From a virus: DNA of 41,351 bases. Every line of letters begins with the position of its first letter. The stretch's first letter is position 1. Positions 22,896-33,125 of the stretch are shown piece after piece. A model generated the notes under the pieces. The model saw only the letters and a program-made list of their open reading frames with translations. It searched no databases and was not told the DNA's origin. The stretch covers positions 1-41,351 of IMG/VR virus record IMGVR_UViG_3300048592_000315; one strand, written 5' to 3'. Both the position numbers and the translations under genes were made by a program.

Positions 22896-25718
22896 TCACA
22901 CCACCAGCAGGTCGCCGGTATACGCCGGCACCTCCGGCACAGAGATAGCCCGCCCGATGGCCATGATCGCCGCGACCACCCCGTCGATCTTGTTGGCGCT
23001 GGTCTCTTTTCGCGGGTAAATGTTCTCCTTTGCGTCGATGTGGCACACGACGTTGCTCACCATCCACTCGAACACCGGGTCGCCGTCATAGTGGAAGCGC
23101 CCGGACTGCACCAGGGCGTCGAATTCCTTCATCGGCTGGCTAAAGTTCTGCACCGTGTTGCGGTACTCGACCATGACCGCGCCCGCTTCGGTCATCCTCG
23201 AGGCCAGTTGCGTGGCTTGCCACGGGTCATAGGCCACTTCCTGCACGTCAAACCGGCTGAAACAGTCGAGCAGATCGGCCTCGATCACACCGAAATCCAG
23301 CACAAAGCCCGGCGTGGTGGTGATCCGGCCCTCGATTTCCCATCCCGAATACTGCGAATTGCGGGATTCCTGCACTGCTGCCTCGGGCAGAAAGCTGCGC
23401 AGAAACCCGTAGTAGTGCTTCTGGCCGTCGATTTCGCGCTCGAAAAGCAGGAATCTGGCGGCAATATCCGTCTTCGATGCCAGATCCAGCCCGATCCAGC
23501 ACCGGCAGCCGCCGAAGTCGTCGAGGCTCAGCTCAGGATCCACGCACGCGCGGAACTTCTGCATGTTCATCCACGCCGAATCGGCGTTCACCCAGATGTT
23601 CAAGTGCTTCGTCTGAAAGTTGGCCTGCGCAGCCGGCAGCTCCATGGCTTTCGCGCAGAGCTGGGCCACCACCTCGGGCATGACCGACACGCCCCAGTTG
23701 GGGTTGGCCTTTCGCCACGTGGATTCGGCCGACCAGTCGTCGCCCTCGTCGACCGTGTAGATAATCCCGAACACCGAGTCATCCGACACCACGCCATCGA
23801 GCACGCGGGCGGTATATGTGCGGGTCTCGTAGCAGATCCCGGCCCGGTTTGAGCCGGCGGTGGTGATCACCCAGAGCAGGGACTGCGGGCGCTTGCCGGT
23901 GCCGGTCTCGAGCGCGTCGTAAACATCACGAGTCCGGTGCGCGTGGAGCTCGTCGACGATGGCCAGGTACACGTTGAGGCCGTCGAGCGCGTTGGACTCG
24001 CTGGCCACCGGCTGAAAGGTCGAGGCCGTCGAGGCCTGGGCGATCGCGTGCGCCAGCACCTCCACCCCGAGCGCCGTGCACATCTCCGGCCGGCGCCTGG
24101 CCATGTTCTGCGCCACCGAGAAGACGATGCGGGCCTGATCGCGGGTCACGGCTGCGCTGTAGACCTCGGCGCCACCTTCGCGGTCAGCAAATCCCGCCTT
24201 CAGACCGACGGCAGAGCTCAGGGCGGAGTTATGCGTCACAATGTGGCCTGGCGTCACCAGGTACAGGCCATCCGCGCTATCGACCTCGATGCACTTCACC
24301 GGACGGCTCGGAACAGGGTCGCAACGAACGATGGTTCGGTATCCTTGCAGCCCACGGCTCGGCGGTCTCTGCTTCAACCTGGCCCGTTTGCGAGACAGCC
24401 GAAAGACCGGCAGATCGCTGTATGCATGAAAATCTATGTGCCAGTAGTCCCCGGCCGGCACCCCATTGCACTTCCCGGCCCGCCTGCTCAGGCGTGGGCG
24501 CATCCCGAGCGACGCCACCAACTGATAAACCTGCCGCGCCAGTCGCTCGCGCTTTTGGACGAACTGGCATTGCCCCTGACCTACGCTGATGTGCCCGTCT
24601 GTATCCATCAGGCCCTGTAGCAGCGCGAGGCGCTGATCGGCGCTGGCCGTCATATAGCTTTCCGGGATGTGCTTGTTGCGCAGCAGGTCCATCGCGCGCA
24701 GGCGGGCAGTAAAACATGTTCTCCGAGCGATCAAGGAGCGGTCACCTGTCGACAGCCGGTATGCGTATTTACCCCCCTTCTGCTCTTTCTCGATCGGCTC
24801 GCCGTCGGCCCGTATCAGGTCGATGATCTCCAGGTCGGCGGTGGCCAATCGCCCAGTTCTGGCGGCGCCGTCGCCAAGCCAAACGCCCAAGACATACGGC
24901 GGGATGGGAAACGCCCGCTCCTCTCCGCTAAGAGCGGTCGTTACCGCGACCCGGTGATTGCGGTCTTGCCGGCACATGAGCGTGGCGGCGATCTCCTGGG
25001 TGGTCTTAACCGACGGCCGCGGGCCGGCATTCTTCCCGCCGCGCCCTTTTGTGCGATCACGATCTATGCGGGAATCCGTCACCCACTGATGCGTTGCGTC
25101 GGCTACCACGCTCTCCCCTGTGCTGAATTCCATCTCGTAGCACGGCCGGTCATGCATGACCGGGGTGGCCGCCTTGACGACAACCGGACGACCAGACGGT
25201 GCGTAAACATAATCACCGGGCTCGATGTCTGCGAGCCTGCGCAGCCCGGCCGGGGTCGGGATCAAGGTCTCGCAATCTAAAGCCTTCCCGTTGCCCCTGG
25301 GCACCTCGATATACACCCGACGGAACCGCCGATGATGGGTGCCACGGCGCAACCACCCGAATGCCACCGTCAGAATGAAGCACTGCCATGGCTCCAGTCG
25401 GATGTTTTCGCCCGACAGCGGCCCCTTGATGTGGGGAAGCAGCTCGATGAACCGGCACCATTCGCCGGCTACAGCCTCGGAGAACTCGAAAGGACCGCGC
25501 TTTTCCCAGCGTGCCAGGTCGTCGACCTGTCGCTGACAGGCCAATCTGACCCACTTGCAGGCCGGTATCCGCCCGGAAATCACCCCGGACGCATAGCCCA
25601 TCGCCCTCAGTACATGCGGATCAGTGAACCGCGCCGCCGGACTTGACCGGCGTGCTGGCTTTTTGCGGGCCACCGAACGCGGCGAACGGGTTTTCTTTTT
25701 CGGTCGGCTTTGCGACAT
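22896..25718 (-). CDS. Terminase large subunit containing an intein in its ATPase P-loop
   Basis: A 940-residue precursor. The exteins total 588 residues, normal for a P27-associated TerL. The Walker A motif PRGNGK/S is split by the intein between Lys145 and Ser498. Walker B is LAIVDELHAH (585-594). The nuclease domain shows WIGLDLASKTD (742-751) and NKIDGVVAAIMA (909-920), with acidic metal ligands. TerL translocates DNA into proheads and cuts concatemers. It overlaps the small subunit gene by 98 bases. Unspliced protein cannot form the P-loop, so splicing should be required for packaging. Confidence 0.95.
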   Translation of the reverse strand: MSQSRPKKKTRSPRSVARKKPARRSSPAARFTDPHVLRAMGYASGVISGRIPACKWVRLACQRQVDDLARWEKRGPFEFSEAVAGEWCRFIELLPHIKGPLSGENIRLEPWQCFILTVAFGWLRRGTHHRRFRRVYIEVPRGNGKALDCETLIPTPAGLRRLADIEPGDYVYAPSGRPVVVKAATPVMHDRPCYEMEFSTGESVVADATHQWVTDSRIDRDRTKGRGGKNAGPRPSVKTTQEIAATLMCRQDRNHRVAVTTALSGEERAFPIPPYVLGVWLGDGAARTGRLATADLEIIDLIRADGEPIEKEQKGGKYAYRLSTGDRSLIARRTCFTARLRAMDLLRNKHIPESYMTASADQRLALLQGLMDTDGHISVGQGQCQFVQKRERLARQVYQLVASLGMRPRLSRRAGKCNGVPAGDYWHIDFHAYSDLPVFRLSRKRARLKQRPPSRGLQGYRTIVRCDPVPSRPVKCIEVDSADGLYLVTPGHIVTHNSALSSAVGLKAGFADREGGAEVYSAAVTRDQARIVFSVAQNMARRRPEMCTALGVEVLAHAIAQASTASTFQPVASESNALDGLNVYLAIVDELHAHRTRDVYDALETGTGKRPQSLLWVITTAGSNRAGICYETRTYTARVLDGVVSDDSVFGIIYTVDEGDDWSAESTWRKANPNWGVSVMPEVVAQLCAKAMELPAAQANFQTKHLNIWVNADSAWMNMQKFRACVDPELSLDDFGGCRCWIGLDLASKTDIAARFLLFEREIDGQKHYYGFLRSFLPEAAVQESRNSQYSGWEIEGRITTTPGFVLDFGVIEADLLDCFSRFDVQEVAYDPWQATQLASRMTEAGAVMVEYRNTVQNFSQPMKEFDALVQSGRFHYDGDPVFEWMVSNVVCHIDAKENIYPRKETSANKIDGVVAAIMAIGRAISVPEVPAYTGDLLVV
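24228..25283 (-). other. Class-3-like intein with LAGLIDADG homing endonuclease in TerL
   Basis: The insert spans residues 146-497 (352 residues) of the terminase precursor. It starts with ALDCETLIPTPAG, so the first residue is Ala rather than the usual Cys/Ser, and ends VTHN before extein Ser498. The triplet of class 3 inteins is present: Trp212 in block B (DATHQW), Cys476 in block F (RPVKCIEVD) and Thr495 in block G. Two DOD endonuclease motifs are intact: LGVWLGDG (277-284) and LLQGLMDTDG (366-375). The insertion between the conserved Lys and Ser of Walker A is an allele that homing could target in related phages. Boundaries were checked against the codons. Confidence 0.9.
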
Positions 25719-26124
25719 GGATGCGCGGCCGTGCGGCCGGCGAGAATCCCAACTGTTCCACGCACCTGAGAATCAGGAGCGACATTTTTTGGAATGTGCG
25801 GATCGCCGGGTGTTCAGTCACGCCACCCGCCATCGAATCGGCGAGGATGCCCTCGGTGTTGATCACGTGCTGGGCAACGTTCTGGGTATCCACAGCACGC
25901 ACCCAGGTCAGGAACACCGAGCGGTCGAGCAGCTTCAGCAGACCGGGCGGCGCCTGGGCGATGGCCTCCCGCCAGAGCTGGATCTGGGCCGGTGACAGCC
26001 CGGCAGGTGGCTCCAGCAGATCGCCATCGAGGCGCAGCTCCTGGTCACGGTCGCGATGCTTGGTGGCGTGCAATGTGCCGTCTGTTTTATGCATCTGCGT
26101 GGGCTTCGGTTTGCGGCCTCTCAT
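25621..26124 (-). CDS. Terminase small subunit, P27 family
   Basis: A 167-residue protein starting MRGRKPKPTQMHKTDGTLH, the usual P27-family N-terminus, followed by a central helical region and a basic C-terminus. It recognises phage DNA and presents it to TerL. The ATG at 26124 is preferred to the TTG two codons upstream. It overlaps TerL by 98 bases, and its start overlaps the stop of a 34-residue frame (ATGA). Confidence 0.9.
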   Translation of the reverse strand: MRGRKPKPTQMHKTDGTLHATKHRDRDQELRLDGDLLEPPAGLSPAQIQLWREAIAQAPPGLLKLLDRSVFLTWVRAVDTQNVAQHVINTEGILADSMAGGVTEHPAIRTFQKMSLLILRCVEQLGFSPAARPRIHVAKPTEKENPFAAFGGPQKASTPVKSGGAVH

Positions 26125-26225
26125 GGCCAATACCCCAAATCAGCCAAAAACGGCAGCGCGTGTGCGCGAGGAACTGCTACGGTCACGCCGCCAGTTGTAA
26201 AGTTTATCCCTCCCCCCTGCCTCAT
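26121..26225 (-). CDS. Possible 34-residue peptide coupled to terS
   Basis: A short frame, MRQGGGINFTTGGVTVAVPR and following, ends in a TGA overlapping the small-terminase ATG (ATGA). It fills the gap between the HNH gene and terS. No ribosome binding site is obvious. It could be a leader peptide, a small real gene or chance. No family recognised. Confidence 0.4.
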   Translation of the reverse strand: MRQGGGINFTTGGVTVAVPRAHALPFLADLGYWP

Positions 26226-32330: not shown

Positions 32331-33125
32331 ATGCTCATCGAGTTCCTCCCGATACTCATTGTCTGCGCCTTAGTCTGGCTGGCAGTCCGGGCGGGGCTGA
32401 AACGACGGGACAGCAATGAGGCGGCCCCAGGTGTAACAATCACCATCAGCTACGGCGACGACAGCAACGACAACTGGGAAGGGAGCTTCTGGGATGTCGC
32501 AGAGCCACGGTCGGTCTCAGCGCAGCTGCGGATCGCGTATACGGATGGCAAAGGCAACGACACCACCCGCAGCATCAGGGTTCGCCAGTTCGGCGAGTGC
32601 GCTGATCACGTATTGATCATGTCCCACTGCCTGCTACGCGATGCCACCCGCACCTTCCGGTCAGACCGGATCCGGGAATGCATCGATGAAGAAACCGGGG
32701 AGGTCGTGGGCGACGTGGCCGCATACCTGCGGCACAAGTACGAGACATCACCAGACCGGTCGCTCGACCGCCTAGCCGCGGATGAAATCGACACGCTCCG
32801 AGTGTTGCTGTACGTGGGGAAGGCCGATGGTCAGCTAAAAGCCGCCGAAAAGGCCATCATCAGGGAAACCTGCATCCAGATCGCGGGCGATACCCGGCTC
32901 ACGGATGACGCAATCGACAGGATCTTCAAGGAGCTGCGCCAGCCGAGCGTGCACGCCTTCAAAATCGCGGTTGGGCGCGTCGCCAAGCAGGGTGAGCACA
33001 AGGGCGCTATCCTGTTGAGCGCAGCCGAGAGGATGGTCGCCACTCAGAAGACGGTGCACGCTGCAGAGGCCGAGGCATTGGAATACATGCGCTCGCGCTT
33101 CACTGCTCGAGCCGCTCGCCAGTAA
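32331..33125 (+). CDS. Membrane-anchored WYL-like / TerB-domain protein (lysogenic cargo)
   Basis: A 264-residue protein. Residues 5-22 are one hydrophobic anchor. Residues about 62-135 (LRIAYTDGKGNDTTRSIRV, MSHCLLRDATRTFRSDRI, ECIDEETGEVVGD) resemble a WYL-type ligand-binding module. Residues about 155-255 (LRVLLYVGKADGQLKAAEKA) resemble TerB. GAGG precedes the ATG. It follows the repressor in the same direction and before the second operator, so it should be expressed in the lysogen. A role in superinfection exclusion or host stress sensing is inference. Confidence 0.72.
   Translation: MLIEFLPILIVCALVWLAVRAGLKRRDSNEAAPGVTITISYGDDSNDNWEGSFWDVAEPRSVSAQLRIAYTDGKGNDTTRSIRVRQFGECADHVLIMSHCLLRDATRTFRSDRIRECIDEETGEVVGDVAAYLRHKYETSPDRSLDRLAADEIDTLRVLLYVGKADGQLKAAEKAIIRETCIQIAGDTRLTDDAIDRIFKELRQPSVHAFKIAVGRVAKQGEHKGAILLSAAERMVATQKTVHAAEAEALEYMRSRFTARAARQ

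What the first reader, a model, noticed from the sequence alone, without database searches (positions are those of the whole stretch)
24228..25283. Class-3-like intein with intact homing endonuclease splits the terminase P-loop
Seen: a 352-residue insert between Lys145 and Ser498 of Walker A, starting with Ala, with Trp212, Cys476 and Thr495 in the positions of the class 3 WCT set, and two DOD motifs (WLGDG, LMDTDG). Known: class 3 inteins lack a nucleophilic first residue and use the block F cysteine; a phage origin has been proposed for them. Inference: packaging ATPase activity is switched on only after splicing, and the endonuclease may cut intein-less terminase genes of co-infecting phages.
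Basis: partly seen in the sequence, partly recalled or inferred. Interest (0 to 1): 0.86.

Follow-up and report, generated by a model that had tools for sequence, protein, structure and literature searches.

The report
Class 3 intein in phage terminase
A phage's DNA-packaging motor gene is interrupted by a self-splicing protein element that also carries a DNA-cutting enzyme; near-identical phages lack it, so it looks like a mobile parasite of a well-known kind, although two relatives appear to carry it as a split, two-gene version.

Summary
Window 24228-25283 (minus strand) encodes a 352-aa insert, A146..N497, between Lys145 and Ser498 of the TerL Walker A motif. It meets every sequence criterion of a class 3 intein: Ala1, His B:10, Trp B:12, Cys F:4, Thr-His-Asn at G:5-7, Ser+1. 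The predicted fold (pLDDT 94.8) superposes on crystallised class 3 inteins (6bs8: 1.2 Å over 125 of 125 residues, 43% identity), and its whole length superposes on PI-SceI, so a two-motif LAGLIDADG endonuclease is present and looks intact. Eight IMG/VR contigs with about 90%-identical DNA lack exactly these 1056 bases and encode an uninterrupted 588-aa TerL: natural empty sites. The intein's closest relative sits in an unrelated Terminase_6-type gene, at the same K|S position. Splicing and cutting were not tested here; both are documented for phage TerL inteins, as is this insertion site. It is therefore a new member of a known kind (1701 class 3 inteins were counted in 2020). [quoted passage not shown]

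The parts
22896..25718 (-). terL precursor gene, 940 aa, contiguous ORF (extein plus intein)
25284..25718 (-). N-extein, TerL residues 1-145, ending in Walker A ..PRGNGK
24228..25283 (-). class 3 intein, A146..N497, 352 aa
25053..25283 (-). N-terminal splicing region (blocks A and B; approximate end)
25083..25091 (-). His210 (B:10), Gln211, Trp212 (B:12); intein residues 65-67, the same numbers as His65/Trp67 of the MchDnaB1 intein
24354..25052 (-). LAGLIDADG homing endonuclease domain (approximate limits)
24867..24887 (-). first DOD motif GVWLGDG (residues 278-284)
24594..24611 (-). second DOD motif LMDTDG (residues 370-375)
24228..24353 (-). C-terminal splicing region (blocks F and G)
24291..24293 (-). 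Cys476 (F:4), predicted initiating nucleophile
24228..24236 (-). Thr495-His496-Asn497 (G:5-G:7)
22899..24227 (-). C-extein, TerL residues 498-940, beginning with Ser498 (+1 nucleophile, Walker A Ser)
25621..26130 (-). terminase small subunit gene (context)

Best explanation
[quoted passage not shown] Mechanism, inferred from the class: Cys476, with His210 and Thr495, attacks the Lys145-Ala146 bond and forms the block F branched thioester; the N-extein is passed to Ser498; Asn497 cyclises and frees the intein; the joined exteins form a 588-aa TerL with an intact GNGKS P-loop, so ATP-driven packaging can only begin after splicing. The free intein acts as a homing endonuclease that cuts intein-less terL alleles at the GNGK|SA site, and repair copies the intein in. 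Shown here: exact boundaries, class 3 residues, predicted fold, natural empty alleles in close relatives, a patchy distribution, and an intein relative in an unrelated terminase type. Not shown here: splicing, DNA cleavage, or any effect on packaging.
For: Boundaries and WCT residues. All catalytic positions invariant in 43 relatives; 75 of 120 non-redundant relatives read A..W..C..THN|S after GK, most others differ at one of these positions. phmmer hits class 3 DnaB intein structures 6bs8, 6rix and 6riy, with HQW, KCIEV and THN aligned. Model pLDDT 94.8, pTM 0.93; 6bs8 Z 23.0, rmsd 1.2, 125 aligned, 43% identity, and PI-SceI Z 26.9 over residues 1-352. Both DOD motifs present. Eight empty alleles. 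Sister intein in a Terminase_6C protein (99/97 support). Top phage hits include Bxz1-type 'HNH endonuclease' proteins, which I take from general knowledge to be the RecB/Catera gp206 intein group; the Catera Gp206 class 3 intein spliced in a model precursor (PMC3196547). TerL inteins of five mycobacteriophages splice, and two cleave intein-less TerL of partner phages (PMC5050341).
Against: No biochemical test. The intein sequence is a singleton: no second close copy was found, so selection on its endonuclease cannot be measured. No clear co-conversion tract shows in the window's own flanks. Its GC3 (0.736) is low against the extein (0.823) but within the range of other structural genes, so composition does not prove recent arrival.
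Confidence: 0.88

Rival explanations
1. The intein splices but its endonuclease is already dead, so it is now inherited passively and the patchy distribution reflects losses.
For: Only one copy of this sequence is known, and inteins often lose the endonuclease with time (general knowledge). Activity cannot be read from motifs alone.
Against: Both catalytic-type DOD motifs are intact, and the fold is predicted at high confidence along most of the endonuclease. All eight closest terL alleles are empty, and the nearest intein lies in an unrelated terminase type, which points to transfer.
Confidence: 0.25
2. It uses a class 2 or class 1 pathway rather than class 3.
For: The first residue is Ala, as in some class 2 inteins.
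Against: Class 1 needs Cys/Ser/Thr at position 1, absent here. Class 2 lacks the WCT triplet, which is complete here and invariant among relatives. The closest solved splicing domains are class 3.
Confidence: 0.03
3. The intein is kept as a regulatory switch that delays packaging until conditions allow splicing.
For: It sits in the P-loop of an essential ATPase; conditional splicing is reported for mycobacterial DnaB inteins (PMC6195587, abstract).
Against: About 90%-identical phages do without it. The five phage TerL inteins tested spliced readily (PMC5050341). Nothing here shows regulation.
Confidence: 0.08
4. It is an in-frame terminase domain insertion that is not excised.
For: The ORF is contiguous.
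Against: An unexcised insert would separate Walker A Lys from Ser; all splicing residues are conserved, and the 79 nearest TerL loci examined have an uninterrupted site.
Confidence: 0.02

Closest known systems
TerL1-a inteins of mycobacteriophages and the K. rhizophila prophage (Kelley et al. 2016, PMC5050341)
   Same: Intein in a terminase_1-type TerL between the Walker A Lys and the following Thr/Ser.
   Different: Actinobacterial hosts there; here a temperate siphophage whose closest phage TerL matches are Marinobacter, Burkholderia and enterobacterial phages. I could not tell from the text read whether TerL1-a itself is class 1 or class 3.
Class 3-type inteins of Rhodobacter phages (RcTiptonus group) and Stenotrophomonas phage SOVA965 terminases
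   Same: Same site (GK|S/T), same WCT residues, with endonuclease.
   Different: 36-37% amino-acid identity only; annotated simply as 'terminase'. SOVA965 starts with Pro and RcTiptonus with Arg.
Mycobacterial DnaB class 3 inteins (6bs8 M. smegmatis, 6rix M. chimaera)
   Same: Splicing domain nearly superposable (1.2-1.8 Angstrom, about 42% identity).
   Different: Mini-inteins in DnaB without an endonuclease.
PI-SceI (yeast VMA intein)
   Same: Hint fold plus two-motif LAGLIDADG endonuclease over the whole length (Z 26.6-26.9).
   Different: Class 1 chemistry; about 16% identity; different host gene.
AceL NrdHF naturally split class 3 intein (PMC7891396)
   Same: Relevant to the split relatives L013 and L067: class 3, intein halves carrying blocks A/B and F/G on separate genes.
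   Different: AceL NrdHF lacks an endonuclease domain (a separate GIY-YIG gene lies between the halves). L013 and L067 keep a LAGLIDADG domain on the C-half. The window's own intein is not split.

Membership tests
Class 3 intein | No nucleophile at intein position 1 | tested here: met
   Ala146 is residue 1
Class 3 intein | Trp at B:12 with His at B:10 | tested here: met
   His210/Trp212 align with HQW of 6bs8; invariant in 43 relatives; definition from PMC5222942
Class 3 intein | Cys at F:4 | tested here: met
   Cys476 in VKCIEV aligns with the catalytic Cys of 6bs8; invariant
Class 3 intein | Thr G:5, His G:6, Asn G:7, Ser or Thr at +1 | tested here: met
   THN|S
Class 3 intein | Hint fold like solved class 3 inteins | tested here: met
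   6bs8 Z 23.0, rmsd 1.2 over 125/125, on a predicted model
Class 3 intein | Splices through a block F branched intermediate | not testable with these tools
   needs expression and the Cys476Ala mutant
LAGLIDADG homing endonuclease | Two DOD motifs with acidic residues | tested here: met
   GVWLGDG and LMDTDG; 110 of 114 endonuclease-length relatives have both
LAGLIDADG homing endonuclease | LAGLIDADG fold | tested here: met
   PI-SceI Z 26.9; I-DmoI also matched; Pfam LAGLIDADG_3
LAGLIDADG homing endonuclease | Cleaves the intein-less allele | not testable with these tools
   candidate substrates exist: L006-L012 and L014
P-loop (site a) TerL1 intein | Insertion between Walker A Lys and Ser/Thr of a terminase_1-type TerL | tested here: met
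   GNGK|S; Pfam TerL_ATPase/TerL_nuclease, phrog_9
Naturally split class 3 intein | Intein halves encoded by separate ORFs | tested here: not met
   The window's ORF is contiguous; relatives L013 and L067 are broken in two

The most novel reading that the evidence does not exclude
Related phages at the same TerL site carry a naturally split class 3 intein. In L013 and L067 the N-half (blocks A, B) and the C-half (a short beta-beta-beta-alpha segment, LAGLIDADG endonuclease, blocks F, G) are separate overlapping or adjacent genes, and TerL is made by trans-splicing. It would be the second natural split class 3 intein that I know of and the first with its homing endonuclease on the C-fragment.
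Probability: 0.45. Interest if true: 0.6.

Novelty: new member of a known kind. Interest (0 to 1): 0.36.

Why it matters
It adds a well-defined class 3 intein in a phage TerL, with matched natural empty alleles at about 90% DNA identity, a ready-made pair for testing homing between phages. The P-loop K|S position is shared by inteins in unrelated terminases and in DnaB, which supports the view that class 3 inteins move among phage ATPases. The split relatives could show how a homing intein becomes a split one and could supply a trans-splicing tool with both nucleophiles on one fragment.

Tried and rejected
Synonymous recoding of the homing site: the codons within 3 to 5 of the site vary more than expected among six intein-free haplotypes (amino-acid-matched p 0.005 and 0.010). 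A control in intein-free enterobacterial TerLs shows no excess, but six haplotypes are few, the control has little power, and the signal fades by 10 codons and depends on the window chosen, so it stays a hint. Co-conversion around the window's own insert: no clear step in identity. Base composition as a sign of recent arrival: GC3 is low but 9% of other 352-codon stretches of structural genes are as low. Monophyly of the window intein with the split pair L013/L067: in the careful tree they fall next to each other but L225 is the window's sister; holding the three alone together is not rejected (AU p 0.09). A search for further split examples in 398 genomes of the same phylum found none besides L067; another with the N-half gave intein-free TerLs in the eight loci read. 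Programmed frameshifting as the cause of the break in L013 and L067: judged less likely because the relative frames differ (+1 versus -1) and I saw no standard slippery site by eye. Tori and Perler 2011 could not be read (not held).

Full report
What is there. The window is a 41,351-base linear IMG/VR virus record, a temperate HK97-type siphophage: portal, protease, capsid, tape measure, small and large terminase, ParB-like proteins and an integrase are recognisable. On the minus strand, 22896-25718 encodes a 940-residue terminase large subunit. Pfam finds the TerL ATPase and nuclease domains and a LAGLIDADG_3 match inside the interrupted part.

Class. Class 3 inteins are defined by the lack of a nucleophile at position 1 and by Trp B:12, Cys F:4 and Thr G:5 (PMC5222942; PMC3196547). 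The insert has Ala1, His65 and Trp67 (intein numbering), Cys331, Thr350-His351-Asn352 and Ser+1. phmmer against solved structures returns the M. smegmatis and M. chimaera DnaB class 3 inteins first, with HQW, the block F Cys and THN aligned. In an alignment of 43 relatives all these residues are invariant, and among 120 non-redundant relatives the pattern GK|A..W..C..THN|S/T dominates.

Fold. The AlphaFold model has mean pLDDT 94.8 and pTM 0.93. VIA-align places 6bs8 at 1.2 Angstrom over all 125 residues with 43% identity, Z 23.0, and PI-SceI over residues 1-352 at Z 26.9. The insert is thus a Hint splicing domain with a two-motif LAGLIDADG endonuclease. Both DOD motifs (GVWLGDG, LMDTDG) are intact, as in 110 of 114 endonuclease-length relatives.

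Empty sites. A scan of IMG/VR found eight contigs (L006-L012, L014; metagenomes 3300048589, 48590, 48836, 48837, 48839) whose TerL is 96-98% identical in protein but uninterrupted. BLAST against the window shows a gap at the intein in DNA that is otherwise collinear at about 86-93% identity, several kilobases on each side in the longer contigs. The empty site reads PRGNGK|SA(L/I)SSA. All 79 TerL loci examined from a second scan have an uninterrupted site (that search ranks by full-length match, which favours uninterrupted genes, and includes some of the eight).

Origin. The intein's best-supported sister (99/97) is in L225, a protein whose C-extein matches Terminase_6C and not TerL_ATPase/TerL_nuclease; it too sits after a Lys of a P-loop-like motif and before Ser. 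TerL descent alone therefore does not explain where this intein came from; movement between terminase types does. Similar class 3 inteins sit at GK|S/T in proteins of many actinobacteria whose flanks read like DnaB and in terminases of Rhodobacter and Stenotrophomonas phages.

What is already known. Kelley et al. 2016 (PMC5050341) describe TerL inteins in mycobacteriophages, among them site a, between the P-loop Lys and Thr; the five TerL inteins tested splice, and two cut intein-less TerL DNA from partner phages. Hoffmann et al. (PMC7891396) counted 1701 class 3 inteins, 82.5% with LAGLIDADG motifs, all cis-splicing, and described the first natural split one, AceL NrdHF. The window intein is a new member of this known kind.

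Split relatives. L013 (IMG/VR) and L067 (a proteobacterial MAG contig) have TerL exteins about 55% identical to the window's and an intein at the same K|S site, but each is broken into two ORFs just after block B. In L067 the second ORF can start at a GTG that overlaps the stop of the first (GTGA); in L013 the nearest downstream ATG lies 17 bases after the stop. A contiguous relative, L206, reads straight through the same region, so the break is probably derived. Among 168 loci with both intein halves only these two are broken. Between them the intein segments are collinear without length change and evolve under purifying selection, dN 0.13-0.26 against dS near or above 1 in every segment. The relative frame differs (+1 versus -1), which suits separate translation better than programmed frameshifting. 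Independent sequencing errors at one spot are unlikely but not excluded; the L067 contig title gives a coverage of only 4.5.

Trace of homing in L013. Its C-extein is 85-100% identical in protein, in 20-codon steps, to intein-free L320, L323, L325 and L348, while its N-extein is only 55-90% identical, and the change happens at the insertion site within about 20 codons; two intein-free alleles compared with each other show no such step. The flank changes from GNAK|ST in the empties to GNGK|SA, as in the window and L067. Import of the intein with the adjoining N-extein by recombination is the simplest reading.

Open. No splicing or cleavage was measured. Whether the window endonuclease is active, and whether the raised synonymous diversity at the empty site (control) reflects escape from homing, need experiments and more alleles.

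Noticed in passing
L013:1505-4538 and L067:4989-7948: TerL with a class 3 intein at the same site, broken into two ORFs just after block B in both; both halves conserved. Candidate natural split class 3 intein with endonuclease on the C-half.
   Followed up: partly
L067:5603-5830, L013:2196-2417, L206:2932-3159: A segment of about 65 aa between block B and the endonuclease, predicted as three strands and a helix with good confidence, absent from the window intein; possibly an extra DNA-binding module.
   Followed up: partly
L013 versus L320, L323, L325, L348: Sharp step in identity at the intein insertion site: C-extein nearly identical, N-extein diverged; looks like recombination that brought in the intein.
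   Followed up: partly
L013:846-1259 (-) and L067:4144-4647 (-): Toxin-antitoxin-like genes on the opposite strand between terS and terL in both split loci: PIN domain plus MazE-type antitoxin in L013, GNAT acetyltransferase plus TacA-like antitoxin in L067. Absent at this place in the window.
   Followed up: partly
empty insertion site in L006, L007, L008, L010, L011, L012 (window 24213-24227 and 25284-25298 equivalent): Synonymous codons around the empty site vary more than expected among six haplotypes (p about 0.005-0.01), not in a small control clade.
   Followed up: partly
L016 and L017 (terL): Class 3 inteins of the same family at another TerL position, about 26 residues after the P-loop.
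   Followed up: no
L211 (IMGVR 3300048837_001239): Another gene with a class 3 intein (44% identical, flanks ARKNAK|STLA) in the same metagenome as three of the empty alleles.
   Followed up: no
PHROG families 15, 19299, 36964; GenBank 'HNH endonuclease' of Bxz1-like phages: The window's match spans intein residues in terminase-named profiles (e.g. phrog_15 at residues 131-388), so these profiles seem to contain intein sequence; the Bxz1-like proteins hit by a LAGLIDADG intein are annotated as HNH endonucleases.
   Followed up: no
window 32331-33125 (+): Protein with a WYL-domain match in PADLOC, function unclear.
   Followed up: no
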